A model generated the notes under the pieces. The model saw only the letters and a program-made list of their open reading frames with translations, searched no databases and was not told the DNA's origin. Below, in pieces: positions 6,289-56,941 of a stretch of 64,000 nt of DNA. How positions within the stretch are numbered: the first letter of the stretch is position 1; each line of letters begins with the position of its first letter. Source of the stretch: Blastococcus haudaquaticus (GTDB lineage: Bacteria > Actinomycetota > Actinomycetes > Mycobacteriales > Geodermatophilaceae); NCBI RefSeq assembly GCF_900230285.1, contig NZ_OCNK01000003.1, positions 496,001-560,000 on the forward strand, read 5' to 3'. The position numbers and the translations under genes were made by a program.

Positions 6289-6347
6289 GGCCCCCTTCCA
6301 GGGGCCCGCCCTGAGCCTGCGAAGGGTGGGGAGGAAGGGGGTCCTTC
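6289..6347 (-). repeat. hairpin repeat, copy A (59 nt)
   Basis: Read on the minus strand, this 59-nt block aligns without gaps to 31728-31786 and 56883-56941, at about 80% identity to the latter by eye. Its ends form a near-perfect 12-bp stem (6288-6299 with 6333-6344 on the plus strand, one G-T pair), with an inner stem around the loop. It starts 3 nt after the TGA of the minus-strand DUF2530 gene and lies between two convergent genes, so it may act as a bidirectional terminator. There is no T-tract. Confidence 0.75.
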
Positions 6348-6350
6348 CAG

Positions 6351-6560
6351 TCACCTGCGGCGGGACTGGCCCTGCAGCTTCATGATCCACAGGCCCATCA
6401 GGGCCAGGCCGATGGCGGCCAGGCACGTCCAGGTCCACATCCGGTCCACCCGGTCGCCCAGGACCAGCAGCACGACGAGCGCCACCGCCCAGATGCCGAT
6501 GCCGACGAGGACGACGCGGGCGGTGTCCACCTGCAGCGGGGGCGGGGCCTGCTTCGTCAC
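6351..6560 (-). CDS. DUF2530 small membrane protein
   Basis: The 69-residue protein has two membrane helices (about residues 15-35 and 43-61) and a basic tail (GQSRRR). It starts with a PPPLQVDTARVVLVG segment typical of the actinobacterial DUF2530 family (Rv0879c in M. tuberculosis). Function is unknown. The GTG start at 6560 follows a TAAGGT box by 6 nt with no ribosome binding site, suggesting a leaderless transcript. Confidence 0.85.
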   Translation of the reverse strand: MTKQAPPPLQVDTARVVLVGIGIWAVALVVLLVLGDRVDRMWTWTCLAAIGLALMGLWIMKLQGQSRRR

Positions 6561-6566
6561 GGTGCG

Positions 6567-6572
6567 ACCTTA
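6567..6572 (-). promoter_or_regulatory. -10 box, predicted leaderless promoter of DUF2530
   Basis: TAAGGT on the minus strand, 6 nt before the GTG at 6560. Confidence 0.45.
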
Positions 6573-6699
6573 GGCCCGCGGCAGGTCACGATCGCAGAAC
6601 CCCTCGGGCCGGGCGGGACGGGGCACGCGTCCTGCCGGACGGTCGTGTGGCACGCTGTCGCCGCTCGTCGCCAGCCACCGCCGTCCCGGGGGAGTCCGC

Positions 6700-8229
6700 A
6701 TGCCCGAGAAGTCCCGTCCCACCACGGGTTCCACCACCGCAGGTGCTGACGGCGGGACGCCGGCGGACGTGCTCGCCGGCGGGACCGGTGCCCGCCGCAG
6801 CGACGGACCGCAGGTGCGCCCGAAGAACGGCCTCGACCGCTACTTCGAGATCAGTGCCCGGCGCTCGACCCTCACCCGTGAGCTGCGCGGCGGCCTGACG
6901 ACCTTCTTCACGATGGCCTACATCGTGGTCCTCAACCCGATCATCCTGTCGGGCGCCGACGTCAGCGGGAACGAGCTGCCGTTCGCGTCCGTGGCCGCCG
7001 TCACGGCGCTCATCGCGGGCGTCATGACGGTGCTCATGGGCGTCGTCGGCCGGTACCCGTTCGCGCTCGCCACCGGACTGGGCATCAACGCCATCGTCGC
7101 GGTCTTCGCCGCCACCCAGCTCTCCTGGCCGGAGATCATGGGCCTGGTCGTGCTGGAGGGCCTGCTGATCACGGTCCTGGTGCTCACCGGGTTCCGTCGC
7201 GCCGTCTTCGAGGCCATCCCGCCGCAGCTGAAGACGGCCATCGCCGTCGGCATCGGCTTCTTCCTCACGATCATCGGTCTCGCCGACGCCGGCATCATCC
7301 GGCCGGGCAACCCGCTGATCAGCTTCGGTGTCGGGGGTCAGCTGGCCGGCTGGCCGATCCTGGTCTTCGTCGTCGGGCTGCTGCTGACCGCCGTGCTCGT
7401 GGTCCGCCGGGTCAAGGGTGCGCTGCTCATCGGCATCGTCATCTCGACCGTGCTGGCGATCATCATCGAGGCCGTCGCCGACATCGGCCCGCGGTTCGGC
7501 GCCGACGGTGCGGAGAACCCACGCGGTTGGGCGCTGCAGGTCCCGACCCTGCCCGACGACGTCGTGGGCACCCCGGACCTCTCGCTGATCGGCAACTTCT
7601 CGCTCTTCGGGGGCTTCGAGCGGATCGGTGTCATCGCCGCGCTGCTCATCGTCTTCTCGATCATGATCGCGGACTTCTTCGACACCGTCGGCACCGTCAC
7701 GGCGGTCGGCGCCGAGGCCGACCTCCTCGACGAGAAGCGCAACCTGCCCAAGTCGCAGCCGGTCCTCCTCGTCGACTCCCTCGCCGCCGCCGCGGGTGGT
7801 GCCGGCAGCGTCTCGTCGAACACGACCTACATCGAGAGCACGGCCGGCGTCGCCGACGGCGCGCGCACCGGCCTGGCCAGCGTGGTGACGGGTCTGCTCT
7901 TCCTGGTGGCCACCCTCTTCAGCCCGCTCGTCCAGGTCGTGCCGTCGGAGGCCGCGGCCCCGGTGCTGGTGATCGTCGGCGCCATGCTGATCAGCCAGAT
8001 CAAGAACCTGGCCTGGGACGACATGTCGCTGGTCATCCCGGCCTTCCTGACGATCGCCCTCATGCCCTTCACCTACTCGATCACCAACGGCATCGGGGCC
8101 GGTGTCGTCAGCTACGTGCTGCTGCGGACCGCCGTCGGCCGGAGTCGCGACGTCCACCCGCTCATGTGGGTCATCGCGCTGCTGTTCCTCGTCTACTTCC
8201 TGCTGGAGCCCCTGCAGCAGCTGTTCTGA
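6700..8229 (+). CDS. NCS2-family purine permease (AzgA/PbuG type)
   Basis: The 509-residue inner-membrane protein has a 50-residue polar N-terminus, then 12 or more hydrophobic segments. It carries the hallmarks of the AzgA branch of NCS2 transporters: LTTFFTMAYIVVLNP, ATGLGINA, ADFFDTVGT and SSNTTYIESTAGVADGARTG. The family imports hypoxanthine, guanine or adenine with protons. The ATG at 6700 follows GGGGGAG with 5-nt spacing. There is no recognisable purine riboswitch in the 139 bp upstream. A MarR regulator follows 45 bp downstream but has its own promoter-like box. Confidence 0.92.
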   Translation: MPEKSRPTTGSTTAGADGGTPADVLAGGTGARRSDGPQVRPKNGLDRYFEISARRSTLTRELRGGLTTFFTMAYIVVLNPIILSGADVSGNELPFASVAAVTALIAGVMTVLMGVVGRYPFALATGLGINAIVAVFAATQLSWPEIMGLVVLEGLLITVLVLTGFRRAVFEAIPPQLKTAIAVGIGFFLTIIGLADAGIIRPGNPLISFGVGGQLAGWPILVFVVGLLLTAVLVVRRVKGALLIGIVISTVLAIIIEAVADIGPRFGADGAENPRGWALQVPTLPDDVVGTPDLSLIGNFSLFGGFERIGVIAALLIVFSIMIADFFDTVGTVTAVGAEADLLDEKRNLPKSQPVLLVDSLAAAAGGAGSVSSNTTYIESTAGVADGARTGLASVVTGLLFLVATLFSPLVQVVPSEAAAPVLVIVGAMLISQIKNLAWDDMSLVIPAFLTIALMPFTYSITNGIGAGVVSYVLLRTAVGRSRDVHPLMWVIALLFLVYFLLEPLQQLF

Positions 8230-8261
8230 GCAGTTGCTGAGCGTCGCTAATCACACGGGGA

Positions 8262-8267
8262 TAAGCT
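8262..8267 (+). promoter_or_regulatory. -10 box, predicted leaderless promoter of the marR-MFS pair
   Basis: TAAGCT lies 7 nt before the GTG at 8275, within the 45-bp gap after the purine permease. Confidence 0.42.
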
Positions 8268-8274
8268 GGGGAAC

Positions 8275-8709
8275 GTGAGCCGGACGACGCTGGACACCGC
8301 GGCACTGGCTCACGACCTGCGGCTGGCGGTGATGCGCTTCTCCCGCCGGCTGCGCAACCAGCGGGTCGACAGCTCGGTCACCCTCACCCACCTCGCGGCG
8401 CTGTCCACGCTCAAGCGCGTGGGGCCGATCAGCCCGGGGGAGCTGGCCGCCCACGAGCGGGTGCAGCCACCCTCGATGACCCGGGTCGTCGTCGCGCTCG
8501 AGGGGATGGGTCTGGTCACCCGGACCCCGCACCCGACCGACGGCAGGCAGGTCATCATCGGCCTCACCCCCGCCGCGGAGGACCTCCTCACCGAGGAGGC
8601 CCGCGCGCGCGAGGCGTGGCTGAGCGGCCGGCTGCAGGAGCTGACGCCGGAGGAGCGCGCCGTGCTCCGCGAGGCGGCCGAGATCATGGAGAAGCTCGCC
8701 GGTGGGTGA
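8275..8709 (+). CDS. MarR family transcriptional regulator
   Basis: The 144-residue protein has the winged-helix layout of MarR regulators: N-terminal dimer helix, recognition-helix region VQPPSMTRVVVALEGMGLVTR, wing with HPTDGRQV, and a C-terminal dimerisation helix. It corresponds in context to Rv0880 of M. tuberculosis. Its stop overlaps the GTG of the following MFS exporter (GTGA), so the regulator and transporter are coupled and the regulator probably controls them both. The GTG start is preceded only by a -10-like box. Confidence 0.9.
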   Translation: MSRTTLDTAALAHDLRLAVMRFSRRLRNQRVDSSVTLTHLAALSTLKRVGPISPGELAAHERVQPPSMTRVVVALEGMGLVTRTPHPTDGRQVIIGLTPAAEDLLTEEARAREAWLSGRLQELTPEERAVLREAAEIMEKLAGG

Positions 8710-10097
8710 CCTGGACGAGTACTGACCAGGCGGCCGTGCAGGACCCCGGCACGGGATCGTTCCGTGCGCTGCGGGTCCGGAACTTCCGCATCTATGCATC
8801 GGCCAACCTGGTCAGCCTCACCGGCACCTGGATGCAGCGCATCGGCCAGGACTGGCTGGTCCTCCAGCTGTCCGGCGACAGCGGGGTCGCGCTCGGGCTG
8901 ATCACCGCGCTGCAGTTCGGCCCCAGCCTGCTGCTCAGCATGTACGGCGGGGTCCTCGCCGACCGCTACGAGAAGCGCCGGACGTTGCTGATCTGCCAGG
9001 CGCTGATGGGCCTGCTCGCGCTGGTGCTGGCGATCCTCGTGGCCACCGACGCGGTGGCCCTGTGGCACGTCTTCGCGCTGGCCGCGGGGCTGGGCTCGGT
9101 CGCCGCGATCGACCTGCCGGTGCGGCAGGCGTTCGTGTCCGAGATGGTCGGCTCGGCCCTGCTGACGAACGCGGTGAGCCTGAACTCCACGATCTTCAAC
9201 GGGGCCCGGCTGGTCGGGCCCGCGGTGGCCGGCCTGCTGATCGGCGCCTCCTCGGGGAACACCGCCCCGGCTTTCTTCGTCAACGCCGCCAGCTTCGCGT
9301 TCACGATCGCCGCGCTCGCCGGCATGCGGGCCTCCGAGCTGAGGCCCAGCACGCCGGTGGCGCGCGCCAAGGGCCAGCTCCGCGAGGGCCTCCGCTACAC
9401 CCGGGCGCACCCGGACCTGCTCCTGGCGATGGGCCTCGCGTTCGTGATCGGCACCTTCGGCTTCAACTACCAGGTGACGATCGCGCTGATGGCCCGCGAG
9501 CAGTTCGGGCTGGGCGCGGAGGCCTTCGGGCTGCTGTCCACCACGTTCGCCGTCGGATCCCTGACCGGCGCCCTGCTGTCCACCCGCCGCAGCGTGCGGC
9601 CGCGCCAGCGATTCCTGGTGATTTCCGCGGTCGTCTTCGGGCTGTTCACCGTGGTCGCCGGCCTGATGCCGGGCTACGCCTCCTTCGCCCTGCTGCTCGT
9701 GCCCACCGGCGCCGCGGCGCTGGTGTTCAGCGTGGCCAACAACAGCTTCGTCCAGCTCGGCGTCGACCCGCAGATGCGCGGCCGCGTCATGGCGCTGTAC
9801 TTCATGTCCTTCATGGGCGGCACGCCGGTCGGGGCACCGCTGATCGGCTGGATCTCCGAGCACCTCGGTGCGCCGTGGGGGCTGATCCTGGGCGGAGCCG
9901 TCTGCGTGGTCGCCGGCCTCGGCGCGGCCGCGTGGCTCGCCCGGGGACGGCGGGTGCGGCTGGAGGGCGCCCTGCGCCCGCCGCGCCTGCGGCTGCGGGT
10001 CGGCGCCCCGGGGACGCGCGTGCCGTCGGCCCGGCTGCGCGCCGCGGCGGAGGCCGCCGAGGAACAGACCACCGGGCCCCAGAACCTGGGGCGCTGA
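8706..10097 (+). CDS. MFS exporter (MFS_3/EntS type)
   Basis: The 463-residue, roughly 12-helix transporter has the enterobactin-exporter-like pattern: FRALRVRNFRIYASANLVSLTGTWMQ at the start, DRYEKRRTLL in loop 2-3 and a MRGRVMALYF segment in the second half. It most likely exports a small hydrophobic or toxic molecule in exchange for protons. The GTG at 8706 overlaps the marR stop by 4 nt. The Arg-rich C-terminal 60 residues are cytoplasmic and poorly conserved in appearance. Pairing with MarR suggests inducible efflux. Confidence 0.9.
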   Translation: MTWTSTDQAAVQDPGTGSFRALRVRNFRIYASANLVSLTGTWMQRIGQDWLVLQLSGDSGVALGLITALQFGPSLLLSMYGGVLADRYEKRRTLLICQALMGLLALVLAILVATDAVALWHVFALAAGLGSVAAIDLPVRQAFVSEMVGSALLTNAVSLNSTIFNGARLVGPAVAGLLIGASSGNTAPAFFVNAASFAFTIAALAGMRASELRPSTPVARAKGQLREGLRYTRAHPDLLLAMGLAFVIGTFGFNYQVTIALMAREQFGLGAEAFGLLSTTFAVGSLTGALLSTRRSVRPRQRFLVISAVVFGLFTVVAGLMPGYASFALLLVPTGAAALVFSVANNSFVQLGVDPQMRGRVMALYFMSFMGGTPVGAPLIGWISEHLGAPWGLILGGAVCVVAGLGAAAWLARGRRVRLEGALRPPRLRLRVGAPGTRVPSARLRAAAEAAEEQTTGPQNLGR

Positions 10098-10162
10098 GGG
10101 CCCGCGGGCACCGCACCCGGAGTACCGTCCCCGGCATCCCCGTGCGGGCACCGGAGGCGACG

Positions 10163-10549
10163 ATGTACGTCCCACTGCTCCAGATCGGCGGCACGGTCGC
10201 CGTCATCGCCGCTCTCATCGCGTGGACCGGGCCCGCCGTCCGATGGGTCCGCCGGAGGATGGAACGCCGCCGCGCCGTCCGCTGTCCCGCGCCGGACCGG
10301 CGTCCGCTGCAGGTCGTCGCGGCCGACCTCCGCCGGCTCGCCCGCTCCCTCTCGCTCGTCCCGGCCGGCGCACCGATGGCCCGCCGGCGGGCGTTGGTGG
10401 CTGCCTACGACGACGTCCTCGTGGAGGCGGCGGCCCTGCTCGAGGTGCCGCACGAGCTGCGGACCGGGCCGGACGGCCCCGTGCGCGACGCCGAGCGGCT
10501 CCGGCTCGTGGCCCAGCTGGAGGCCGCCGGGCTGGCGGTGCAGGGCTGA
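10163..10549 (+). CDS. hypothetical membrane-anchored protein
   Basis: The 128-residue protein has one N-terminal membrane helix (about residues 5-22), a basic stretch (RWVRRRMERRRAVR) that should stay inside, and a helical domain of about 90 residues (AADLRRLARSLSLVP, YDDVLVEAAALLEVPHEL). I do not recognise the family, but the helical part resembles small actinobacterial hypotheticals. The ATG follows CCGGAGGCGACG, a good ribosome binding site. It overlaps the downstream ThpR gene by a CTGA. Confidence 0.7.
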   Translation: MYVPLLQIGGTVAVIAALIAWTGPAVRWVRRRMERRRAVRCPAPDRRPLQVVAADLRRLARSLSLVPAGAPMARRRALVAAYDDVLVEAAALLEVPHELRTGPDGPVRDAERLRLVAQLEAAGLAVQG

Positions 10550-11115
10550 GTCCGGCCGGACGGCGGCTGTTCCTCGCCGTCGACCCCCCGGAGTGGGCCC
10601 GGTCGGACCTGGCGGCGGCCGTCGCGCCGCTGACCTCGGCGGCCGGGGCGCCGCGCTGGACCGTCCCGGAGCGGTGGCACCTCACGCTGCTCTTCCTCGG
10701 CGCGGTGCCGGCCGGGTGCGTGGAGCCGCTGGTGTCGGCGGCGGGACCGGCCGTGGCGGGCACACCGGCGATGCGGCTGCGGCTGGCGGGAGGTGGGCGG
10801 TTCGGCTCCCTCCGCCGTCCGCAGGTCGCGTGGGCCGGCCTGGACGGGGACGTCGCGGCACTCGTCGCGCTCGCGGAGCGGCTGGCCGACGCGGCGCGCG
10901 CGGTCGGACTGCCGGTCGAGGACCGGCCGTTCCGTCCGCACCTCACCCTGGGCCGCTGGCGTCCCCGGCAGCCGGCGGACGGGTCGCTGACCGACCGGCT
11001 CGCGGACTACCGCGGTCCGGTGTGGCCGGTGGAGGAGGTGCGCCTCTGGGAGAGCCACCTCGGGCGGGAGCCGACCTACGACGTGGTCGCGAGCTGGCCG
11101 ATCCCGGTCGAGTGA
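10546..11115 (+). CDS. thpR: RNA 2',3'-cyclic phosphodiesterase (ThpR / 2'-5' RNA ligase-like)
   Basis: A 2H phosphoesterase with both catalytic HxT motifs (HLTLLFLG and HLTLGRW) about 80 residues apart, and the family-typical opening RRLFLAVDPP. Enzymes of this fold hydrolyse RNA 2',3'-cyclic phosphates. No ATG, GTG or TTG lies near the conserved start. The frame is open upstream only as antisense-like Arg/Gly/Pro-rich sequence. The best start is a CTG at 10546 in a CTGA overlap with the preceding gene, giving 189 residues. Translational coupling would explain a weak start codon. Confidence 0.82.
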   Translation: MSPAGRRLFLAVDPPEWARSDLAAAVAPLTSAAGAPRWTVPERWHLTLLFLGAVPAGCVEPLVSAAGPAVAGTPAMRLRLAGGGRFGSLRRPQVAWAGLDGDVAALVALAERLADAARAVGLPVEDRPFRPHLTLGRWRPRQPADGSLTDRLADYRGPVWPVEEVRLWESHLGREPTYDVVASWPIPVE

Positions 11116-11169
11116 GCAGTTCCGGTCGCCTCGCCCGGCGTGCCCGCGCACGTCGGCGACGGGAACTGC
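11116..11169. terminator. bidirectional hairpin terminator between thpR and the aldo/keto reductase
   Basis: Arms 11116-11130 and 11155-11169 pair over 14 of 15 positions, starting right after the thpR stop. The 24-nt loop can form a small inner hairpin. There is no T-run, as is usual in this GC range. It sits between convergent genes. Confidence 0.6.
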
Positions 11170-11179
11170 ACAGTCGGCG

Positions 11180-12148
11180 TCACCAGGCGTACTCCATGGG
11201 GGCGGCGCGGTAGCCCGGGAAGATCTCGTCCAGGCGCTCCAGCGCGGCGTCGTCCAGCTCGACGTCGAGCGCGGCCAGGGAGCCCTCGAACTGCGCCATC
11301 GTGCGCGGGCCCACGATCGGGGCGGTCACCGCCGGCTGGTGCAGCAGCCAGGCGAGCCCCACGCCGGCGGGTGCGTGCCCGAGGTCGCGGCAGAACGCCT
11401 CGTAGGCCTCCAGGGCCGGCCGGTGCTCCTCGATCCGCTTCTGCTGGCGCTCCTCGTTGCGGCGGCCGCCTTCCGTCTTCTCGAGCACGCCTCCCAGCAG
11501 GCCCCCGGCGAGCGGGCTCCACGGGATGATGCCGACGCCGTAGTGGGTGGCGGCCGGGAGCACCTCGAGCTCCACGTGCCGGGTGAGCAGGTTGTAGTGC
11601 GACTGCTCGCTGACCAGGCCCTGGAAGTTCCGGCGGGCGGCGGCCTCGTTCGCGGCCGCGATCTGCCACGCCGCGTGGTTCGACGATCCGACGTAGAGGA
11701 CCTTGCCCTGGGCGACGAGCGTCTCGCAGGCCTGCCAGATCTCCTCCCACGGCGTCCGCAGGTCGACGTGGTGGAACTGGTAGAGGTCGATCCAGTCCGT
11801 CTGCAGCCGGCGCAGCGAGGCCTCGCAGGCCCGGACGATGTTGCGGGCCGACAGGAAGGTGTCGTTGGGCCAGTCGGTCATCGAGCCGTAGACCTTGGTG
11901 GCGAGGACCGTCTTCTCCCGCCGCTCCGCCCCGTGGGCGAACCAGGTGCCGAGGACCTCCTCGGTGCGGCCCTTGCCGACCTCGAAGCCGTAGACGTTGG
12001 CGGTGTCGAAGAAGTTGATCCCCTCGGCATGCGCGCGGTCCATGATCTCGTGCGAGTCGGCCTCCTCGGTCTTCCAGCCGAAGTTCATGGTGCCCAGGCA
12101 CAGGCGGGAGACGGTGAGGCCGCTGCGGCCGAGGTGCGTGTACTCCAT
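11180..12148 (-). CDS. aldo/keto reductase
   Basis: The 322-residue TIM-barrel oxidoreductase has the catalytic tetrad visible: Asp and Tyr in FFDTANVYG, Lys in ATKVYG, and His in FHHVD. NADPH-binding segments follow near the C-terminus (IVGPRTMAQ). It should reduce aldehydes or ketones with NADPH in the cytoplasm; the substrate is not predictable. The ATG at 12148 (MEYTHLGRSGL) fits the family start. It diverges from the thioesterase gene with only about 28 bp between starts. Confidence 0.92.
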   Translation of the reverse strand: MEYTHLGRSGLTVSRLCLGTMNFGWKTEEADSHEIMDRAHAEGINFFDTANVYGFEVGKGRTEEVLGTWFAHGAERREKTVLATKVYGSMTDWPNDTFLSARNIVRACEASLRRLQTDWIDLYQFHHVDLRTPWEEIWQACETLVAQGKVLYVGSSNHAAWQIAAANEAAARRNFQGLVSEQSHYNLLTRHVELEVLPAATHYGVGIIPWSPLAGGLLGGVLEKTEGGRRNEERQQKRIEEHRPALEAYEAFCRDLGHAPAGVGLAWLLHQPAVTAPIVGPRTMAQFEGSLAALDVELDDAALERLDEIFPGYRAAPMEYAW

Positions 12149-12176
12149 GGGGAACGACCCTGGCACCCTGTGCGCC

Positions 12177-31078: not shown

Positions 31079-31726
31079 GTGCCCGACCTCACCCGCATGC
31101 GCAACGACTACACCGCCGGCCGGCTCACCGAGGAGGACCTCGCGCCCACCTGGGTCGAGCAGTTCGACCGCTGGTTCGGCGACGTGGTCGCCGCGGAACT
31201 GCCCGAGCCCAACGCGGTCGTGGTCGCCACCGCCGACGCCGACGGGGCTCCCGACGCCCGGGTCGTCCTGATAAAGGGCTACGACGAGGCCGGGTTCATC
31301 TTCGGCACCAGCTACGCCTCGGCCAAGGGCGCCCAGCTCGCGGTCAACCCGAGGGCGGCACTGGTCTTCCCCTGGCACGCGCTGCAGCGCCAGGTCCGGG
31401 TGACCGGCCGGGTCGAGAAGATCGGGGAGACCGCGTCCGACGGGCTGTGGGACCCACGTCCGCGGGGATCGCAGCTGGCCGCGGTGGCCTCGGTCCAGTC
31501 GACGGTCGTGGACTCCCGGGAGGAGCTGGCCGAGCGGGTGCGGCTGCTCGACGAGCAGACACCCGAGGAGAAGGTGCCGCGCCCGGCGGTCTGGGGCGGC
31601 TACCGCGTGCTCCCGGAGCGGGTGGAGTTCTGGCAGGGCGGCAAGGACCGGCTGCACGACCGGCTGCGGTTCGAGCGCGACGACGAAGAGGGGGGCGGCT
31701 GGCTGGTGCGGCGCCTGGCCCCGTGA
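31079..31726 (+). CDS. pdxH: pyridoxamine 5'-phosphate oxidase
   Basis: The 215-residue FMN enzyme oxidises pyridoxine or pyridoxamine 5'-phosphate to PLP. Typical segments are NAVVVATADADGAPDARVVLIKGYDEAGFIF-type beta strands (FMN binding), FPWHALQRQVRVTGRVEKI, SVQSTVVDSREEL and the C-terminal WQGGKDRLHDRLRF that binds substrate. The GTG start is preceded by CAGCAT 6 nt upstream, not by an RBS. Its stop overlaps the GTG of the MFS gene. Confidence 0.94.
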   Translation: MPDLTRMRNDYTAGRLTEEDLAPTWVEQFDRWFGDVVAAELPEPNAVVVATADADGAPDARVVLIKGYDEAGFIFGTSYASAKGAQLAVNPRAALVFPWHALQRQVRVTGRVEKIGETASDGLWDPRPRGSQLAAVASVQSTVVDSREELAERVRLLDEQTPEEKVPRPAVWGGYRVLPERVEFWQGGKDRLHDRLRFERDDEEGGGWLVRRLAP

Positions 31727-33111
31727 AGAAGGATCCTGCTTCCCCCCAGACCTCGCACGGTCGGCCCGGGCCCCTGGAGCAGGGCCAGCGGCGCCGCGGC
31801 TGGGCGATCGACACGACGCCGCTGCGCAACCCGCACTACCGGCGGCTGTTCTGGGGCGTCGCCGCCACGATGCTCGGCCAGCAGATGACGCTGGTCGCCG
31901 TCCCCTTCCAGGTCTACGCACTCACCGGGTCCTCCCTGCTGGTCGGCGTCACGTCGATCGTGGCGCTGGTCCCGCTGGTGGTCTTCGGCCTGCTCGGCGG
32001 GGCGATCGCGGACGCCATGGACCGCAGGCGGCTCATCCTGATCACGTCGGTCGGCGCGGCCGTGACCAGCGCCCTGCTCGCGGTGCAGTCACTGCTGCCG
32101 GGCGGCGGCAACCTGGTGGTGCTGTGGATCCTGACCGCCTGCGTGTCCGGCTTCGCCGCGGTCAACCAGCCCACCCGCAGCGCCGTCATCCCCGCGATCG
32201 TCGGCCCCGCCGGGGTTCCGGCGGCCAACGCCCTGGCCATGACGGTCCGGCAGGCAGGCGTGATCGTCGGGCCGCTGCTGGCCGGCGTCCTGATCGGGAT
32301 GGGCGAGCTCTTCCTGACCTACCTGGTGGACGCGCTCGGCTTCCTGCTGGCCGCCCTGCTGCTGCGCGGCCTGCCGTCGCTGCCCCCGCACGGCGTCGTG
32401 GGTCCGCTCCGGCTGCGCTCGGCGGTGCGCGGGGTGGGGGAGGGCTTCGTCTTCCTCCGCACCCAGCCGGTGCTGCTGATGACGTTCGTCGTCGACATCA
32501 TCGCGATGATGTTCGCCTGGCCGCAGGCGGTCTTCCCCGAGCTCTCGGAGACCCGGTACGCGGACTCGCCCAACAGCCTCGGGTGGTTGTTCGCCGGGGT
32601 GTCGATCGGCGCGCTGGTGATGGGGCTGACGTCGGGCTGGGTGTCGCGGGTGGACCGGCAGGGCGCGGTGGTGCTCGCCGCGATCGCGGTCTGGGGCGTG
32701 GCGATCATCGGCTTCGGCCTGGCGCCGACGTTGTGGCTGGCGGTCCTGTGCCTGGCGGTGGCGGGCGCCGGCGACATGGTCAGCGCGGTGCTGCGCTCCT
32801 CGATGCTCCAACTGGCGGCGCCCGACGACATGCGCGGACGGATGCAGGGCGTGTTCATCGTGGTGGTCGCCGGCGGGCCGCGGCTCGGTGACCTGCGGGC
32901 CGGCGCGATCGCGAGCGCGGCGTCGGTCAGCGTCGCGATGGTGTCCGGCGGCGTGATCGTCGTGGTGGCGATGGCCGTCGTCGCGCTGGTCGTCCCGTCG
33001 TTCTGGCTCTTCCGGGCGTCCCGGTCGACGGTGGAGACGGGCACGGGGACGGAGGCCCGGCCGGGCTCGCCCGCCCCCGAGAGTGGCGAGGACCGGCCGG
33101 GCAGCGCGTAA
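31723..33111 (+). CDS. MFS transporter whose N-terminus is encoded by a repeat
   Basis: The 462-residue MFS_3-type exporter has about 12 helices beginning near residue 40. Family marks are NPHYRRLFWG, GAIADAMDRRRLIL, MRGRMQGVFIVVVAGGPRLGD. The GTG at 31723 overlaps the pdxH stop (GTGA), yet codons 2-22 are formed by hairpin repeat copy C. No other ATG, GTG or TTG occurs before the ATG at about 31869 inside the first helix, so either the repeat was recruited as coding sequence or the gene uses an unusual start. The substrate is unknown. Confidence 0.86.
   Translation: MKKDPASPQTSHGRPGPLEQGQRRRGWAIDTTPLRNPHYRRLFWGVAATMLGQQMTLVAVPFQVYALTGSSLLVGVTSIVALVPLVVFGLLGGAIADAMDRRRLILITSVGAAVTSALLAVQSLLPGGGNLVVLWILTACVSGFAAVNQPTRSAVIPAIVGPAGVPAANALAMTVRQAGVIVGPLLAGVLIGMGELFLTYLVDALGFLLAALLLRGLPSLPPHGVVGPLRLRSAVRGVGEGFVFLRTQPVLLMTFVVDIIAMMFAWPQAVFPELSETRYADSPNSLGWLFAGVSIGALVMGLTSGWVSRVDRQGAVVLAAIAVWGVAIIGFGLAPTLWLAVLCLAVAGAGDMVSAVLRSSMLQLAAPDDMRGRMQGVFIVVVAGGPRLGDLRAGAIASAASVSVAMVSGGVIVVVAMAVVALVVPSFWLFRASRSTVETGTGTEARPGSPAPESGEDRPGSA
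31728..31786 (+). repeat. hairpin repeat, copy C (59 nt)
   Basis: Aligns ungapped with copies A and B. It starts 1 nt after the pdxH TGA, exactly as copy B does after its gene. The arms (GGATCCTGCTTCC and CTGGAGCAGGGCC) pair with one bulge and two wobbles. It lies inside the start region of the MFS gene. Confidence 0.72.
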
Positions 33112-47878: not shown

Positions 47879-47885
47879 GCCGCGG

Positions 47886-49951: not shown

Positions 49952-49957
49952 CGGGGA

Positions 49958-51170: not shown

Positions 51171-51269
51171 CCACCCCGGGTACCCACACGGGGCGCCGGG
51201 GCCTCCGTGACGTCCCCCACCCCTGGGTCGTCCCGGTCCGTCCGGGGCCGGACCGGGACGACGCGCGGG

Positions 51270-52583
51270 TCAGCCGGCGACGGCGGACCGGGGACGACCG
51301 GCGGACAGGCGGGACAGGCCCATGGACAGGGCGACCGCGACGAGGATGCCGATGACCGGCGGGATCCCGATCTCGAGCTCCCCGCTGAGCCACGCCAGGA
51401 ACGCCGCGACGGCGTAGGCGAGCACGTTGGGCCACCGCACGGCCGGGGGGACGTGGTCCTCCGGGATGCCCCGCCGCCACCGGGCGAGGAAGTCGCCGAT
51501 GATGACGCCGCCCAGCGGGGGGATGAACGTCCCGAGCAGGACCAGGTAGTCGACCAGGTGGTTCTGCACGCCGGTCAGCGCCAGCACGGTGGCGATCACC
51601 GACCCCCCGATGACGAAGGGCGCCTTGCTGGGCCGGTTGAACAGCTCCGCCCCGGCCACCCCGAAGGCGTAGGCGGTGTCGGCGTTGCTCTTCCAGAGGT
51701 TGCCGAACAACAGCACCAGACCCCAGCCCACCAGGCCGAGCTGGTAGAGGACCAGCACGAAGTCGCCCTCGCCGAAGGTCAGGGCCCCCACCGCACCGAA
51801 GAAGACCATCAGGCCGTTGCCGATGAAGAAGCCGATGACGCAGGCCCAGACGGCGTGCGAGCCGCGCTTGGCGAAGCGGGTCCAGTTCGGTGCCTGGGTC
51901 CCGGCCGACACGAAGGTGCCCACCACGGTGGTCACCGCCACGGCGAGAGCCATGGACGTCGTCGGCTGCACGTCGGCCAGGCCGGCGAATCCGCCCACCT
52001 CCTGGAGCGACCGGGCGAGCACCCAGAACGCGAGGATGAGGATCAGCGGGGTGGACACCAGCGACACCCAGTACATGCCGCCGTAGCCCCAGTAGGCGGT
52101 GGCGCACATCAGCGCGCTGGTCACCACCATGACCGCGGCCCTGGCGCCGTAGGACTCCCAGCCCAGCGCCTCCGCGGTGAGGTCGCCGATCGTCCCGACG
52201 ACGACGGCGTACCAGCCGACCTGCGTGCCGCCGAGCAGCACCGAGGACAGCTTGGCGCCGCGGGTGCCGAGCGTGTACCGGGCCATGACGACGGTGGTGA
52301 GCCCGGTGCGGGCGCCGATCCACCCCATGACGGCGACGTAGGTCCCGAGGACGAGGGATCCGATGGCGATGACCAGCAGCAGGCCGCTGAAGTCGAACGC
52401 CGGGCCGAGCGCGGCCCCGGCGAGCATCGTCGGGGTGAACACCGTGAAGCCCAGCAGGACGACGGCGACCGAGAAGAACGACTTCCGCGCGTGCGCGGGG
52501 ACCGGCGTGACCGGGTAGTCCGGGTCGATGGCGGCGGCCTCGTCGGCGTCCAGGACCGGACCGGCGCCCGACGTGCTGCTCAT
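51270..52583 (-). CDS. codB: cytosine permease (NCS1 family, CodB-like)
   Basis: The 437-residue, 12-helix transporter matches CodB: FFSVAVVLLGFTVFTPTMLAGAALG, FSGLLLVIAIGSLVLGTYVAVMGWIGARTG, NWTRFAKRGSHAVWA, NLWKSNADTAYAFGVA and FIPPLGGVIIGDF. It imports cytosine with protons or Na+. The ATG overlaps the stop of the upstream cytosine deaminase gene (ATGA), so uptake and deamination are one unit. A divergent PucR protein probably regulates both. Confidence 0.93.
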   Translation of the reverse strand: MSSTSGAGPVLDADEAAAIDPDYPVTPVPAHARKSFFSVAVVLLGFTVFTPTMLAGAALGPAFDFSGLLLVIAIGSLVLGTYVAVMGWIGARTGLTTVVMARYTLGTRGAKLSSVLLGGTQVGWYAVVVGTIGDLTAEALGWESYGARAAVMVVTSALMCATAYWGYGGMYWVSLVSTPLILILAFWVLARSLQEVGGFAGLADVQPTTSMALAVAVTTVVGTFVSAGTQAPNWTRFAKRGSHAVWACVIGFFIGNGLMVFFGAVGALTFGEGDFVLVLYQLGLVGWGLVLLFGNLWKSNADTAYAFGVAGAELFNRPSKAPFVIGGSVIATVLALTGVQNHLVDYLVLLGTFIPPLGGVIIGDFLARWRRGIPEDHVPPAVRWPNVLAYAVAAFLAWLSGELEIGIPPVIGILVAVALSMGLSRLSAGRPRSAVAG

Positions 52584-53077
52584 GACTCCTCCCCGATGTC
52601 TTCGTTCCAGATCTCGGGGCGCTCGGTCATCATGCGGCGCATGAGCTCGATGCACTCGGCATCGTCGACGACGGTGAGCTCGACGCCTTTCGAGCGCAGC
52701 AGCGCTTCCGACGCCTGGAAGCTGCGGTTCTCGCCGATGACGATGCGCGGGATGTCGTAGAGCAGCGCGGTGCCGGCGCACATGTAGCAGGGCGAGAGCG
52801 TCGTGTAGAGCACGCTGGCCCGGTACACCGATGCCGGCTGCCGCCCGGCCTGGTCGATGCAGTCGGTCTCCCCGTGACGGATCGGGCTGCCGAGCTGCAC
52901 GCGCCGGTTGCGGCCGACGGCCAGCACCTCGTCGCGGTGGACGAGTGCGGCACCGATCGGCACGCCTCCCTCGTCCCACCCGATGCGGGCCTGCTCGACG
53001 GCCAGGCCGAGGTAGAAGCGGTCGCGTTCCTCGGGGGAGAGGTCCGGTGGCGCGGTGGGCAGGGGAGCGGCGGTCAC
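52580..53077 (-). CDS. cytosine deaminase of the fungal Fcy1 type
   Basis: The 165-residue zinc enzyme converts cytosine to uracil. Zinc ligands are visible as His68 with catalytic Glu70 in HGETDCIDQAGR, and Cys97/Cys100 in TTLSPCYMCAG. The C-terminal IPRIVIGENRSF and VVDDAECIELM---ERPEIWNEDIGE follow the yeast Fcy1 enzyme almost block for block and differ from the large bacterial CodA. The GTG at 53077 is chosen for its GGAGGAGAACCCC leader; an in-frame start near 53149 lacks an RBS. First gene of the deaminase-permease operon. Confidence 0.92.
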   Translation of the reverse strand: MTAAPLPTAPPDLSPEERDRFYLGLAVEQARIGWDEGGVPIGAALVHRDEVLAVGRNRRVQLGSPIRHGETDCIDQAGRQPASVYRASVLYTTLSPCYMCAGTALLYDIPRIVIGENRSFQASEALLRSKGVELTVVDDAECIELMRRMMTERPEIWNEDIGEES

Positions 53078-53150
53078 GGGGTTCTCCTCCGGTGCGGCGG
53101 GCGGTGGTGCTGCACCCGCAGCGAAGCGCTCCGTAGCCCTGCGGGACAAG

Positions 53151-53163
53151 GGACATGGTGTCC
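53151..53163. promoter_or_regulatory. palindrome at the pucR start
   Basis: GGACATGGTGTCC has 5-bp arms (GGACA/TGTCC) and covers the candidate ATG at 53155 between the divergent deaminase and pucR genes. It is a possible PucR binding site. Confidence 0.3.
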
Positions 53164-54810
53164 GCTCCAGACCGGCAGCTGCTTGACACGGCGTCCAGCC
53201 GCCGCGAGCCTTCCCCGGTGCTGCCCACCGTCACCGAGGTCCTCCGCCTGCCCGCCCTCCGTGCAGCCGCGCCCGAGGTGCTCGCGGGCGACCCCGACAG
53301 CGCCATCGTCCGCTGGGTGCACTCCTCCGAGGTCTACGAGATGGGCGGGCTGCTGGCGGGCGGCGAGCTGCTGCTGACCACCGGGCTGGGTCTGCACGGG
53401 CGGACCGCCCAGCAGGTGGCGGGCTACGTCGAGCAGCTGGCCGACGCCGGCTGTTCCGCGCTGGCCCTGGAGGTCGGACGCTCCTTCGCCGTGGTCCCGC
53501 ATGAGCTGGTGCAGACGGCGCGGCGGCGCGGGATGGTGCTGTTGGCGCTGCACGAGGTCGTCCCGTTCGTCCGGATGGTCGAGGACTTCCACGACCTGCT
53601 GCTGCGCCGCAAGCTCTCCTGGCGCCGGGCGGGTGAGCCGATCTGGCAGGAGCTGCTCGGGCTGGTGGTCTCCGGCCAGGGGCTCGCCGCCGTCCTGCAC
53701 GCCACCGCCCGGATGGCCGACTGCCCGGTCGAGCTGGTCGACGTCGACGGGCGGGTCGTCGAGCGCAGCCACACCCCGGGTCTGCTCGACTCCACGGCAC
53801 GCACCGTCGCCGAGGTGCGCGGGCCGCACGGCCCGGTCGGCCGGCTCGTGCTGCACGGCCGCCCGACCGCCGGCCGCACCGGCGTGGCGGGCCGCGCGGC
53901 CGTCGCCGTCGCGCTGGAACTGGGCCGCCACCCCGACCTGGGCTCGCGGCCGTCGCTCGCGCAGGCGGTCGTCACCGACATGGTGGCCGGGGTGCTCGTC
54001 TCGCAGGGCGACCTGCAGGCCCGGATGTCCGCGGCGGGCTGGGCGCCGGCTCCCGGCGCGGCGGTGCTCGTCCTCGCCGTCGAGGTGGACCGGCGCACGC
54101 CCGCGAGCGAGGCCGTGCCCGCGGTGCGGGAGGCGGCGGAGAGCGTGCTCGGGCGATGCCTGGTCGGCGCGGCCGGCAGCGCGGTGGTCGTCCTGGCCCG
54201 CGGGTGGCCCCGCTCGGCGCAGCGCAGGCAGCGGGACGCCGCCGAGGACCTCCTGCGGCAGCTGCGTGCGGGCGCCCTGGGTGCCGCGGTGCGCACCATC
54301 GGCGTCGCCGACCCGGTCGGGGAACTGGCCGCGGTCCCTGGTGCGGTGGCCCGCGCGCGCGAGGTGGTCACCCTCAGCCGGCGCATCGGCAGCCGCGAGC
54401 CGGTGGTGCTCGCGCAGGACGTGGCCGTGCACCGGCTGCTGGCCGGCGGGCTGGACGCGTCGGAGATCGCCGCCTTCGTCACCGGGCAGCTCGGGCCGCT
54501 CGTCGACCACGACGCCGCCCACGGGACGGATCTGCTGCGGACGCTGGACGCCCATGTCGCGACGGGGCTGAGCAAGACCCGGACCGCCGACGTGCTGGGG
54601 ATCCGCAGGCAGACGCTCTACGCCCGTCTCGAGCGCATCGAGCACCTGCTCGGCGCCCCGGTCGACGACCCGGGCCAGCGGACCTGCCTGGGGCTGGCGC
54701 TGAGCGCGTGGCGCATGCGCACCGGGCTGGATCCCCAGACGGTGCCGGCCGCCACCCGCGGCGGGGTGGCGGGGCCGGTGCCGGTCCTGGCCGGCGGAGC
54801 AGGAGGATAG
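53155..54810 (+). CDS. PucR family transcriptional regulator
   Basis: The 551-residue regulator has the N-terminal PucR sensor domain (about 22-140: LPTVTEVLRLPALRAAAPEVLAG, WVHSSEV, GGLLAGGELLLTTGLGL) and a GGDEF-like middle. The C-terminal helix-turn-helix (about 480-515: TGLSKTRTADVLGIRRQTLYARLERIE) is typical of purine/pyrimidine catabolic regulators. Divergent from the cytosine deaminase-permease operon, it is the likely regulator, sensing a nucleobase or its breakdown product. A GTG at 53218 is an alternative start nearer the conserved region. Confidence 0.92.
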   Translation: MVSAPDRQLLDTASSRREPSPVLPTVTEVLRLPALRAAAPEVLAGDPDSAIVRWVHSSEVYEMGGLLAGGELLLTTGLGLHGRTAQQVAGYVEQLADAGCSALALEVGRSFAVVPHELVQTARRRGMVLLALHEVVPFVRMVEDFHDLLLRRKLSWRRAGEPIWQELLGLVVSGQGLAAVLHATARMADCPVELVDVDGRVVERSHTPGLLDSTARTVAEVRGPHGPVGRLVLHGRPTAGRTGVAGRAAVAVALELGRHPDLGSRPSLAQAVVTDMVAGVLVSQGDLQARMSAAGWAPAPGAAVLVLAVEVDRRTPASEAVPAVREAAESVLGRCLVGAAGSAVVVLARGWPRSAQRRQRDAAEDLLRQLRAGALGAAVRTIGVADPVGELAAVPGAVARAREVVTLSRRIGSREPVVLAQDVAVHRLLAGGLDASEIAAFVTGQLGPLVDHDAAHGTDLLRTLDAHVATGLSKTRTADVLGIRRQTLYARLERIEHLLGAPVDDPGQRTCLGLALSAWRMRTGLDPQTVPAATRGGVAGPVPVLAGGAGG

Positions 54811-54815
54811 GCGGC

Positions 54816-55259
54816 ATGAGTCAGGTCGTCGCCACCGCCGAACGAGTCGTCCGAGCGCCCGCCGAGCAGGTCCGCGCCGCGCTGGCCGACTACGAGGGCA
54901 CCCGTCGCCGCGTGCTGGGGGAGCAGTTCAGCGACTACCGCGTGGAGGCCGGTGGACAGGGCGCCGGTACGCGGGTGCACTGGCTGTTCGCCGCGACGCA
55001 GAAGCGGGTGCGCGACCAGCTCCTGGACGTCACCGAGCCCGCCGGCACCCTCGTGGAGTCCGATGCCAACTCCTCGATGGTGACCACCTGGACGGTGGTC
55101 CCGGCCGACGCCGGCACCTCGACGGTCCGGGTGCGCACCACCTGGAACGGCGCGGGGGGCATCGGCGGGTTCTTCGAGCGCACCTTCGCGCCGAAGGGCC
55201 TGCGCCGCGTGTACGAGCAGATCCTCGAGCGGCTGGACACGGAGCTCGCCGCCCGCTGA
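54816..55259 (+). CDS. SRPBCC family protein
   Basis: The 147-residue protein has the START/Bet v1-like layout of a helix-grip fold: TAERVVRAPAEQVRAALADYEGTRR, then strands ending in the helix GFFERTFAPKGLRRVYEQILERLDTEL. It should bind a hydrophobic ligand or act in cell-envelope or stress biology; there is no specific function. The ATG follows AGGAGGATAGGCGGC, an excellent ribosome binding site. It lies 5 bp after pucR and may be co-transcribed. Confidence 0.88.
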   Translation: MSQVVATAERVVRAPAEQVRAALADYEGTRRRVLGEQFSDYRVEAGGQGAGTRVHWLFAATQKRVRDQLLDVTEPAGTLVESDANSSMVTTWTVVPADAGTSTVRVRTTWNGAGGIGGFFERTFAPKGLRRVYEQILERLDTELAAR

Positions 55260-55290
55260 GCACCTCCTCGGGAGGGCTGCGGCGCGCCAC

Positions 55291-55296
55291 TACGGT
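55291..55296 (+). promoter_or_regulatory. -10 box, predicted leaderless promoter
   Basis: TACGGT lies exactly 6 nt before the GTG at 55303. Confidence 0.45.
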
Positions 55297-55302
55297 GCAC
55301 GC

Positions 55303-55680
55303 GTGATCATGGTCGCCGCCTGGGTCGCGGTCGCAGTTCTCGGCTGCCTCGCCGTCTTCCAGCTCCTCCTCGTCGCCGGCGCGCCGCTGGGGCGGTTCGC
55401 CTGGGGAGGGCAGCACGCCGTCCTGCCGACGGGCCTGCGCATCGGCAGCGTGGTGTCCCTCGCGATCTACGCCGTCGTCGCCCTGCTGGTGCTCCAGGCG
55501 GCCGGCGTGCTCGACGTGCTGCCCGAAGGCATGGTGGGCGTGGCCATGTGGGTGCTCACCGGCTACTTCGTGCTGGGCGTGGCGCTCAACCTCGCCTCGC
55601 GCAGCCGGCCGGAGCGGATGGTGATGACCCCCGTGGCCCTGGTCCTCGCGATCTGCTGCCTGGTGCTGGCCCTGCACTGA
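55303..55680 (+). CDS. four-helix membrane protein, unknown
   Basis: The 125-residue protein has four hydrophobic segments (about 4-25, 45-66, 75-95, 106-124) with a conserved-looking GAPLGRFAWGGQHAVLPTGLRIGS loop after the first. It resembles a widespread small bacterial membrane family seen in actinobacteria and firmicutes; function is unknown. The GTG start is 6 nt downstream of TACGGT with no ribosome binding site. Confidence 0.83.
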   Translation: MIMVAAWVAVAVLGCLAVFQLLLVAGAPLGRFAWGGQHAVLPTGLRIGSVVSLAIYAVVALLVLQAAGVLDVLPEGMVGVAMWVLTGYFVLGVALNLASRSRPERMVMTPVALVLAICCLVLALH

Positions 55681-55718
55681 TCCCGGCACGGGTCGCCGCG
55701 AGAGGGGACGATGGCCGG

Positions 55719-56579
55719 GTGACGACCGCCGCGCCGCCCGCCGACCCCCGGCACCACACGGCGCTCGACGCGCTGGCCGACCTCGTCGTCGACGGGGACG
55801 TCGTCGTCCTCTCCGGGGCCGGGCTCTCCACGGACTCCGGCATCCCCGACTACCGGGGCGCGACCGGCAGCCTGCGCCGGCACACGCCCATGACCTACCA
55901 GACCTTCACCCGCGACCCGCGCGGACGGCACCGCTACTGGGCCCGGAGCTTCGTCGGCTGGCGGCAGATCCGCGAGGCGCGGCCCAACGACGGCCACCGC
56001 GCCGTCGGTCAGCTGCAGACCGCGGGCCTCGTCGGGGGCGTCATCACGCAGAACGTCGACGGGCTGCACCAGGCCGGCGGCGCGACCGACGTCGTCGAGC
56101 TGCACGGCGGGCTGGACCGCACGGTCTGCCTGGGCTGCGGCGACGTCGCCTCCCGGGCGGCGCTGGACGAGCGGCTGCAGGCGGCCAACCCGCACTTCGG
56201 GGCGCGCACCGACGAGATCAACCCCGACGGCGACGCCGAGCTGCCCGACGAGGTGCTCGACGGCTTCGTGATGGTCGGCTGCCTCGCCTGCGGGGACGGT
56301 CCGCTGAAGCCCGACGTCGTCTTCTTCGGCGAGACCGTGCCGCGCGACCGCGTCGACCACTGCTTCGGGCTGGTGGAGGCCGCGGGCAGCCTGCTCGTCC
56401 TGGGCTCGTCCTTGACGGTGATGAGCGGCTACCGGTTCGTGCTGCGGGCGGCGAAGCTCGGCATCCCGGTGGGGATCGTGAACGTCGGGCCCACCCGCGG
56501 CGACGCCAAGGCCGACGTCCGGGTCGATGCCCCGCTCGGGACGGTGCTGCCGGCGCTGGCCGCCCGCCTCACCGCGTGA
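55719..56579 (+). CDS. NAD-dependent protein deacylase (sirtuin, SIRT4-like class)
   Basis: The 286-residue Sir2 enzyme has the NAD-binding GAGLSTDSGIPDYRG, TQNVDGLHQ (catalytic region), ELHGGLDRTVCLGCG, a second CLACG to complete the zinc site, and LVLGSSLTV. The STDSGIPDYR wording fits the class II (SIRT4-like) sirtuins. It removes acyl groups from lysines, forming O-acyl-ADP-ribose. The GTG start has GACGAT 6 nt upstream. Its stop overlaps the next gene (GTGA), linking them. Confidence 0.93.
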   Translation: MTTAAPPADPRHHTALDALADLVVDGDVVVLSGAGLSTDSGIPDYRGATGSLRRHTPMTYQTFTRDPRGRHRYWARSFVGWRQIREARPNDGHRAVGQLQTAGLVGGVITQNVDGLHQAGGATDVVELHGGLDRTVCLGCGDVASRAALDERLQAANPHFGARTDEINPDGDAELPDEVLDGFVMVGCLACGDGPLKPDVVFFGETVPRDRVDHCFGLVEAAGSLLVLGSSLTVMSGYRFVLRAAKLGIPVGIVNVGPTRGDAKADVRVDAPLGTVLPALAARLTA

Positions 56580-56881
56580 GCCGGGACGTCGAGCGCACCG
56601 ACGACGGCCGGTGGATCGTCGTCGACGGTCGGCGGTGGCGGACGGCGGACCCCGCGCTGCCCGACGACGTCCGGGAGCGGCTGCTGCACCACCTGGGCGT
56701 CGGCCGTTCCGGGGTGCGGACGGCCAAGGCATCGGGTGACGACGCCGCGGTGGCCGCGGCCCGCGCCCGGGTGCAGCTGGCCAAGACCGGGCTGGGGGAG
56801 CGGGGCCCTGCCTGGTGGGACCAGGACGACGACGCCCGCCGGGACCGCTGGGAGACCGCGCTGCGCGACCTCGACGGCTGA
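56576..56881 (+). CDS. conserved hypothetical protein coupled to the sirtuin
   Basis: The 101-residue charged soluble protein starts with DGRWIVVDGRRWRTADPALPDDVRERLLHHL and has a KTGLGERG segment and a C-terminal WWDQDDDARRDRWETALRDLDG. I recognise it as a recurring actinobacterial small protein, sometimes mislabelled as a Tol-like transporter; no function is established. Its GTG overlaps the sirtuin stop by 4 nt, so the two are co-translated. The DNA repeat copy B begins 1 nt after its stop. Confidence 0.82.
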   Translation: MSRDVERTDDGRWIVVDGRRWRTADPALPDDVRERLLHHLGVGRSGVRTAKASGDDAAVAAARARVQLAKTGLGERGPAWWDQDDDARRDRWETALRDLDG

Positions 56882-56882
56882 A

Positions 56883-56941
56883 GAAGGACCTCCCTGCCCC
56901 CCACCCCTCGCCCGCTCGCGGTGGGCCCCTGCACGGAGGCC
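56883..56941 (+). repeat. hairpin repeat, copy B (59 nt)
   Basis: Aligns ungapped with copies A and C. It starts 1 nt after the TGA of the small gene coupled to the sirtuin. The arms GGACCTCCCTGC and GCACGGAGGCC pair with one bulged A and one mismatch; an inner CCACC/GGTGG stem follows. It lies in the 107-bp gap before the next gene. Confidence 0.75.

What the first reader, a model, noticed from the sequence alone, without database searches (positions are those of the whole stretch)
6289..56941. Three-copy 59-nt hairpin repeat directly after stop codons, arms covary
Copies at 6289-6347 (minus), 31728-31786 and 56883-56941 align without a gap over 59 nt (roughly 70-80% identical by eye). Each begins 1-3 nt after the TGA of a gene on the same strand. 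Outer arms differ (CCCCCTTCC, CCTCCCTGC, CCTGCTTCC), yet each is complementary to its own partner arm, with the same bulged A in two copies; the inner stems also covary. This points to selection on the folded form: an RNA 3'-end element, transcription terminator or REP-like mobile hairpin.
Basis: seen in the sequence. Interest (0 to 1): 0.74.

Follow-up and report, generated by a model that had tools for sequence, protein, structure and literature searches.

The report
Hairpin repeats parked at stop codons
A short palindromic DNA repeat sits directly behind the stop codons of many genes in one family of soil and stone bacteria; it behaves like a jumping element rather than a transcription terminator, and the enzyme that moves it is unknown.

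Summary
The three copies are real and belong to a large family: at least 155 copies in this 4.5 Mb genome. A covariance model finds it in 101 of 112 genomes of the same family, in 3 other genomes of the order and in none of 395 further phylum genomes sampled. The 80 listed named hits are Geodermatophilaceae. 103 of 155 copies start within -6..+4 nt of a called same-strand stop codon, against 10 of 3030 random positions. The arms covary. Against an RNA 3'-end element or terminator of the host gene: no U-tract (1 of 155), and pairing that fits the antisense strand better (a junction pair forms there in 50 of 51 copies, on sense in 11 of 51). Orthologous sites differ by presence, orientation and nesting. 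The REP transposase domain Y1_Tnp is absent from 108 family genomes. Best reading: a REP/MITE-like palindromic element that inserts at existing stop codons, moved by an unidentified non-RAYT activity. Movement was not observed and its effect on the host is untested.

The parts
6289..6347 (-). Element copy 1. It nearly fills the gap between two convergent genes (stop at 6351 on -, stop at 6287 on +).
   Evidence: R1 83.3 bits
6351..6560 (-). Upstream gene of copy 1: DUF2530 small protein (PF10745); its TGA is 3 nt before the element
5619..6287 (+). 3' part of the convergent DUF3027 gene (PF11228); its stop lies 1 nt beyond the right end of copy 1 (true start not determined)
31728..31786 (+). 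Element copy 2, 1 nt after the pdxH-like stop. It also lies in frame near the start of the next gene if that gene starts at the GTG overlapping the stop (GTGA).
   Evidence: R1 73.1 bits
30986..31726 (+). Upstream gene of copy 2: pyridoxamine 5'-phosphate oxidase, pdxH-like (ORF start as listed; true start not determined)
31723..33111 (+). MFS transporter whose first codons would be the element read in frame (VKKDPASPQTSHGRPGPLEQGQ...); also open in frame in relative G007, not in G002 or G015
56883..56941 (+). Element copy 3, 1 nt after TGA; a copy is present at the orthologous stop in relative G008
   Evidence: R1 74.9 bits
56576..56881 (+). Upstream ORF of copy 3 (101 aa, no Pfam match)

Best explanation
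It is a non-autonomous, REP/MITE-like palindromic DNA element, mostly 57-59 nt (50-62), with a right extension like GTTCCA[GT]CACGTCAC in 29 of 155 copies. It has spread through Geodermatophilaceae and inserts directly at the 3' side of stop codons, left end (GAAGGACC) against the codon. Shown here: copy number, taxonomic limits, stop-codon register, differences in presence, orientation and nesting at orthologous stops, no target duplication above chance, no Y1_Tnp found, and better pairing on the strand antisense to the gene. Inferred: these differences come from transposition; the substrate is the single-stranded hairpin of that antisense (G-rich) strand; an unidentified enzyme joins its foot to a site at the stop codon; the purine leader GA-N-GAAGGA rebuilds TGA, TAG or TAA across the junction, so insertion leaves the protein intact. 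Host effects (a stall of the terminating ribosome as reported for E. coli REPs, or a roadblock to antisense transcription) would be consequences, not the reason for the position.
For: At least 155 own copies. 15 of 16 genus and 101 of 112 family genomes, own genome counted, though some relatives have 0-9 matches (G016, G005, G032, G022). 103 of 155 copies have a called stop at -6..+4 against 10 of 3030 random positions; 30 of the other 52 have a stop triplet there against 446 of 4589 background 13-mers. In other species 75 of 114 are called, and 19 of the other 39 have a stop triplet. Codon-specific register TGA+1 nt (52), TAG+2 (10), TAA overlapping (8). TAA is enriched, 11 of 103 against 9 of 512 stops without element in the G000 window, G020, G035 and G005. 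G000/G008: by my reading of 17 printed sites, 7 carry it in both and 10 only in G000, 7 of those 10 with the stop at the same codon in G008 (the script's strict regex flagged only 4 of 17 as present). Same stop, opposite orientation in G020 and G035 at two sites; nested and replaced copies. pdxH site: full copy in 3, mosaic in 1, outer-stem remnant in 1, no hairpin in 18 of 23 readable genomes. No target duplication above chance. No clear enrichment at convergent ends. Antisense pairing.
Against: No enzyme, no autonomous parent element and no transposition event was seen; only Y1_Tnp was tested, and it is absent. Loss rather than gain cannot be excluded at most sites; polarity is argued only for pdxH. 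22 of 155 copies have no stop triplet at the left end, so stop adjacency is not absolute. No preference for a base before the stop was found (C in 69 of 103 against 343 of 512), so no DNA target motif explains the site choice. Part of the strand asymmetry in folding energy is compositional (shuffles give 4.4 of the 6.7 kcal/mol). Two sites look duplicated by eye although the general test is negative.
Confidence: 0.6

Rival explanations
1. An antisense-facing intrinsic terminator. Read against the gene, it is a strong G-rich hairpin followed by UCCUUC-N plus the complement of the stop codon, and it would stop antisense or convergent transcripts at the 3' border of genes.
For: T in the 8 nt after the hairpin: 3.86 in the antisense direction against 1.26 sense, 1.62 for 61 ordinary 3' hairpins and 1.07 background. 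Antisense pairing is better. The position at the stop is where such a barrier would sit.
Against: Not clearly enriched where a reverse gene follows: 35 of 103 against 177 of 492 gene ends without the element; counting only called reverse gene ends, 33 of 103 against 131 of 492. Patchy between relatives; G005 and G016 live almost or wholly without it.
Confidence: 0.15
2. A 3'-UTR RNA element (terminator, exonuclease barrier or protein site) of the upstream mRNA, kept by selection on the sense RNA fold.
For: Same-strand position after stops; covariation; a stem that starts inside the footprint of a terminating ribosome; E. coli REPs within 15 nt of a stop are reported to stall ribosomes (passages of PMC12306157).
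Against: No U-tract in 154 of 155. Ordinary strong hairpins follow in 21 of 103, at least as often as at other gene ends (28 of 282; 33 of 229 in G005). Sense wobble pairs are rarer than antisense ones: 9 against 29, and 7 against 27 in other species. Differences at orthologous stops.
Confidence: 0.1
3. A true REP mobilised by a RAYT (Y1 tyrosine transposase).
For: Copy number, palindromy, nested and inverted neighbours; GTAG REP termini are said often to supply the TAG stop of flanking ORFs (passage of PMC3733652).
Against: Y1_Tnp (PF01797): 0 of 108 family genomes, while the control rings in 5 of 14 named genomes. GTAG near the left foot in only 13 of 155. 57-59 nt against the 20-40 bp given for REPs in the abstract of PMC3733652 (listing).
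Confidence: 0.04
4. The covariation is a by-product of DNA metabolism (template-switch correction of quasi-palindromes, or copies drawn from several master palindromes), with no selection on any folded form.
For: Among changes that keep a pair, two-sided ones far outnumber one-sided ones (A3: 208 cells against 20; 110 cells are unpaired). At G000/G008 shared sites both arms change together while the upstream gene is 74-95% identical (my reading).
Against: A correcting process should also remove the conserved A.C junction and bulged A, which persist (A.C in 39 of 51 and 43 of 59; A6 in 49 of 51 and 58 of 59).
Confidence: 0.11

Closest known systems
REP / BIME elements (GTAG superfamily) with RAYT
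   Same: High-copy short imperfect palindromes outside or at the edges of genes, part of them close to stop codons (446 of 4072 E. coli REPs within 15 nt, passage of PMC12306157); inverted and nested neighbours
   Different: No GTAG tag, longer, no Y1 transposase found in the family, much tighter lock to the stop codon, left end facing the gene
CGTC-tagged REPs / Rickettsia palindromic elements (RPE)
   Same: Palindromes without a dedicated transposase (PMC3733652 passages); some copies here are read in frame (pdxH-MFS site, and G035 C2:19066 by my reading), as RPEs are (PMC10969869 passages)
   Different: No CGTC tag above background (31 of 155 against 32 of 155 random 20-mers); most copies lie behind stops, not inside genes
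MIRU (mycobacterial interspersed repetitive units)
   Same: Actinobacterial, apparently mobile, inserted so that the neighbouring gene suffers little (passage of PMC12548453)
   Different: MIRUs insert at start codons and carry a coupled ORF (same passage); that they lack dyad symmetry is recalled, from no call. The present element is a palindrome behind stops, at all kinds of gene ends
Bacterial MITEs
   Same: Short, non-autonomous, inverted repeats, patchy between relatives
   Different: No target duplication above chance, no parent transposon known (none was searched for systematically), and a site rule (stop codon) not mentioned in the MITE review PMC10969869 (term 'stop codon' 0 hits)
Intrinsic terminators
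   Same: G+C-rich hairpin after the gene; in the antisense direction also a T-rich tail
   Different: No T-tail in the sense direction; ordinary hairpins persist downstream

Membership tests
REP (GTAG type) | short palindrome, high copy, mostly outside genes | tested here: met
   at least 155 copies
REP (GTAG type) | GTAG at one end of the stem | tested here: not met
   13 of 155 near the left foot
REP (GTAG type) | RAYT (Y1_Tnp) in the genome | tested here: not met
   PF01797 0 of 108
CGTC-type REP / RPE | CGTC at one end | tested here: not met
   31 of 155 within 20 nt of the right end against 32 of 155 in random 20-mers
MITE | insertional polymorphism between relatives | tested here: met
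   (between species, not within one)
MITE | target-site duplication | tested here: not met
   direct repeats no longer than in permuted pairs (mean 4.63 against 4.56; 9 against 5.65 of at least 7 nt, 70-nt right flank); two sites (G002 pdxH; G000/G008 site 133) look duplicated by eye
MITE | related full-length transposon sharing its ends | not tested
   no systematic search for long elements with these ends was run
Intrinsic terminator of the upstream gene | U-rich tract after the stem | tested here: not met
   1 of 155 against 11 of 775 background
MIRU | insertion at stop/start overlap with a coupled ORF | tested here: inconclusive
   the pdxH-MFS copy lies at a GTGA overlap and is in frame; many copies are at other gene ends
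Rfam families | match above gathering score | tested here: not met
   window: only one tRNA; matches below gathering score were not searched

The most novel reading that the evidence does not exclude
A new class of mobile DNA whose target is the stop codon itself. A G-rich single-strand hairpin is joined by an unknown, non-Y1 enzyme to the 3' edge of stop codons, and its purine leader rebuilds a stop. It also doubles as an antisense-facing terminator at gene borders, which could explain why around 150 copies per genome are tolerated.
Probability: 0.3. Interest if true: 0.82.

Novelty: new variant of a known kind. Interest (0 to 1): 0.58.

Why it matters
Known REPs are near stop codons in part of the cases; this family is locked to them at nucleotide resolution across a whole bacterial family, in genomes where the REP transposase domain was not found. 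It makes concrete questions testable: how an element finds stop codons, which enzyme moves palindromes that lack a RAYT, and which strand of a palindrome carries the selected fold. The A.C versus G.U count used here is a simple strand test that could be applied to other palindromic repeats.

Tried and rejected
RAYT association: rejected by the PF01797 scan. Sense terminator: rejected by missing U-tracts and by persisting downstream hairpins; a first count of downstream terminators with T-tails was too sparse to use (4 of 103). DNA target motif CTGA/CTAG: the base before the stop is as at ordinary stops. Target duplication: not above permuted pairs. A substitute repeat at gene ends of the nearly element-free relative G005: no dominant 8-mer at 229 gene ends, but the test is weak, since it did not bring out the element itself in the G000 window (52 ends, 3 copies) and hardly in G035. 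First alignment A1 (44 copies) was misaligned in the outer stem for 57-nt copies and was replaced by the 59-nt set A2 (21 copies). A regex for the inner junction was off by one and its printout was discarded; one search replaces it. The GC3 gene-end caller was replaced by a codon-usage caller. The three copy-bearing genomes of the order outside the family (G164, G173, G248) were not resolved into transfer or contamination.

Rows dropped: 14 of 58 regex candidates before A1; 4 of 21 G008 sites whose alignment ended more than 60 nt from the element; 7 of 30 pdxH loci in which I could not read the gene end (loci existed only for the 30 best of 105 matching genomes); 3 of 119 matches in named loci that were cut or partial (the 116 kept were not checked for overlapping loci). 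One of the 150 places (C4:89483, 30.5 bits) was fetched but did not pass the threshold and is not among the 155.

Full report
OBSERVATION. Single copies do not fold clearly better than their shuffles. A covariance model (R1) from 21 own-genome copies of 59 nt finds only these three in the window with significance and 150 in the genome, which is the scoring cap. With fetched flanks I could separate 155 copies, 50-62 nt long, 135 of them 57-59 nt. The covariation score exceeds all 500 shuffles on the 21-copy set and on two larger own sets of 70 and 93 distinct rows (these are fitted to the model). Not every measure is that clear: 'further pair types' is reached by 40 of 500 shuffles, 'pairs changed on both sides' by 9 of 500. 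Slid structures score at most 0.086.

ANATOMY (sense strand, 5' to 3'). Leader GAAGG with a nearly invariant A6; outer stem of 9 pairs plus GG/CC around the A; CC spacer; inner stem CCC-A-CCNC / GNGG-C-GGG with a conserved A.C junction; loop TCGCNNGCTC; CCCCT; 3' arm; GGCC. In 29 of 155 copies an extension like GTTCCA[GT]CACGTCAC follows, counted by TTCC in the first 9 nt (22 of 116 copies in other species).

DISTRIBUTION. 15 of 16 genus genomes and 101 of 112 family genomes, own genome counted, have it at E up to 1e-5. In the order it is in 76 of 397 genomes, all in the same family except three with 1-2 copies. In a phylum sample only the window's own genome of 396 has it, with strict filters. 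Some relatives are nearly free of it: G016 none, G005 one weak match, G032 three, G022 nine (E up to 0.05).

POSITION. With a codon-usage gene-end caller, 113 of 155 copies have a called same-strand gene end between -9 and +200 of the first base, median 1 nt; 103 of 155 lie at -6..+4, against 10 of 3030 random positions in the same flanks. Of the remaining 52, 30 have a stop triplet there in some frame against 446 of 4589 background 13-mers. Of the 22 without one, five have the right end at or within 4 nt of a called stop of a reverse-strand gene. In other species 75 of 114 copies with enough flank are called. The register depends on the codon: TGA+1 nt 52 times, TAG+2 nt 10 times, TAA overlapping the leader 8 times; a G at -3 occurs in 115 of 155 and fits both TGA and TAG. 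Ordinary strong hairpins at other gene ends start at a median of 22 nt (61 hairpins, quartiles 13-48). TAA is over-represented at elements (11 of 103 against 9 of 512, odds ratio 6.7), as expected if the junction falls inside the stop and the leader rebuilds it.

TURNOVER. Of 30 pdxH loci (the 30 best of 105 matching genomes) I could read the gene end in 23: the full element is in G000, G007 and G002, a mosaic in G015, an outer-stem remnant in G034, and no hairpin in 18, of which G014 has GCAGGACC after the stop, perhaps a remnant. In several empty sites the next gene could start at a GTGA/ATGA overlap, in both genera looked at, so the filled state looks derived. In G000 and G007 the copy is open in frame into the MFS gene; in G002 and G015 it is not. 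For 17 of 155 G000 copies (21 with a similar upstream gene) an orthologous gene end could be aligned in a fetched 800 kb of G008. My reading of the printed sequences is 7 shared and 10 absent (the script's strict regex counted 4 present). At 7 of the 10 absent sites the stop stands at the same codon in G008, so the element met an existing stop. Among the closer trio G020/G034/G035 (85-95% identity over the aligned blocks) the same stop carries the element in opposite orientations at two sites. Elsewhere a second copy sits inside the arm of the first, another repeat (AAAGGATCCTTT) replaces it, and one gene reads through the element to a stop at its right end (my reading). Direct repeats of the flanks are no longer than in permuted pairs, so there is no general target duplication, although two sites look duplicated by eye.

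WHICH STRAND FOLDS. If the mRNA fold were selected, G.U should be tolerated and A.C avoided on the sense strand. In 59-nt copies the opposite holds: 29 A.C against 9 G.T in 51 own copies (p 0.0017), 27 against 7 in 59 copies of other species (p 0.0008). The junction pair forms on the antisense strand in 50 of 51 and 57 of 59 copies, on the sense strand in 11 of 51 and 14 of 59. Computed energy is lower on the antisense strand in 153 of 155, though two thirds of the difference is composition. Shared descent makes copies non-independent, so these p values are guides only.

TERMINATOR TESTS. Sense: 1 of 155 with four T in eight after the stem; ordinary hairpins of at least 10 bp still follow within 115 nt in 21 of 103, against 28 of 282 element-free ends (G000 window, G020, G035) and 33 of 229 in G005. 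Antisense: 3.86 T in eight, far above ordinary hairpins (1.62), so a reverse-facing terminator is possible. Yet elements are not clearly enriched before reverse genes (35 of 103 against 177 of 492; called reverse ends alone 33 of 103 against 131 of 492).

MOVER. Y1_Tnp is absent from all 108 family genomes scanned, with positive controls. No other enzyme was tested.

LITERATURE. Seen as passages: PMC12306157 (E. coli REPs, stop distance of 15 nt or less, ribosome stalling; Geodermatophil-, Blastococcus, Modestobacter 0 hits), PMC3733652 (GTAG REPs often give the TAG stop; CGTC REPs lack a transposase), PMC12548453 (MIRUs), PMC10969869 (MITEs), PMC9686282 (Geodermatophilaceae genomes, palindromes mentioned only as CRISPR). 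Other papers were seen only in listings. Searches for a description in this family showed none in their listings (9 of 9 listed; 20 of 98; 0 found; 12 of 86), within the held open-access library only.

VERDICT. A family-wide, stop-codon-locked, REP/MITE-like element without a detected RAYT: a new variant of a known kind. What is shown: the family, its position, its differences between relatives and its strand preference. What is inferred: movement, single-strand transposition and its enzyme. Host effect unknown.

Noticed in passing
L326 (G036), L330 (G033), L333 (G019), L317 (G004) after pdxH; L431-L436; own copies e.g. G000:C2:219729 and C4:39258: A second repeat (GAGCATCGCAGCGAG...GAGCGAGGAGCGGAGCG...) sits at the same GTGA stop/start overlap, often in tandem units about 34 or 80 nt apart. 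Its core occurs in all 8 genomes scanned (15 exact matches in G000, 37 in G005). It resembles MIRUs in its site.
   Followed up: partly
G020:C4 stretch (L335-L341), orthologous site of G034 C79:14631 / G035 C2:69434: A third palindromic repeat (two AAAGGATCCTTT-like boxes about 40 nt apart) takes the place of the element directly after the same stop codon.
   Followed up: no
G005 and G016 (same genus / same family as the window genome): Relatives of at least 99% completeness that are almost or wholly free of the element (one weak match, none), while the other genus mates of G000 have 28-150: natural controls for its function and for finding the mover.
   Followed up: partly
G164 contig C17, G173 contig C6, G248 contigs C132 and C165: One or two good copies in three genomes of other families of the order, three of the five within about 700 nt of a contig end; transfer or assembly contamination not resolved.
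   Followed up: no
L323 (G034 pdxH site): Remnant with outer stem only (AGGACCCCGCTGCCCCCCTGCAGCGGGGCC): the inner hairpin is lost, hinting at slippage decay of the palindrome.
   Followed up: no
L264 (G000:C10:6098 + / 6138 -), L300 (1453 - / 1501 +): Overlapping back-to-back inverted copies, reminiscent of BIME pairs.
   Followed up: no
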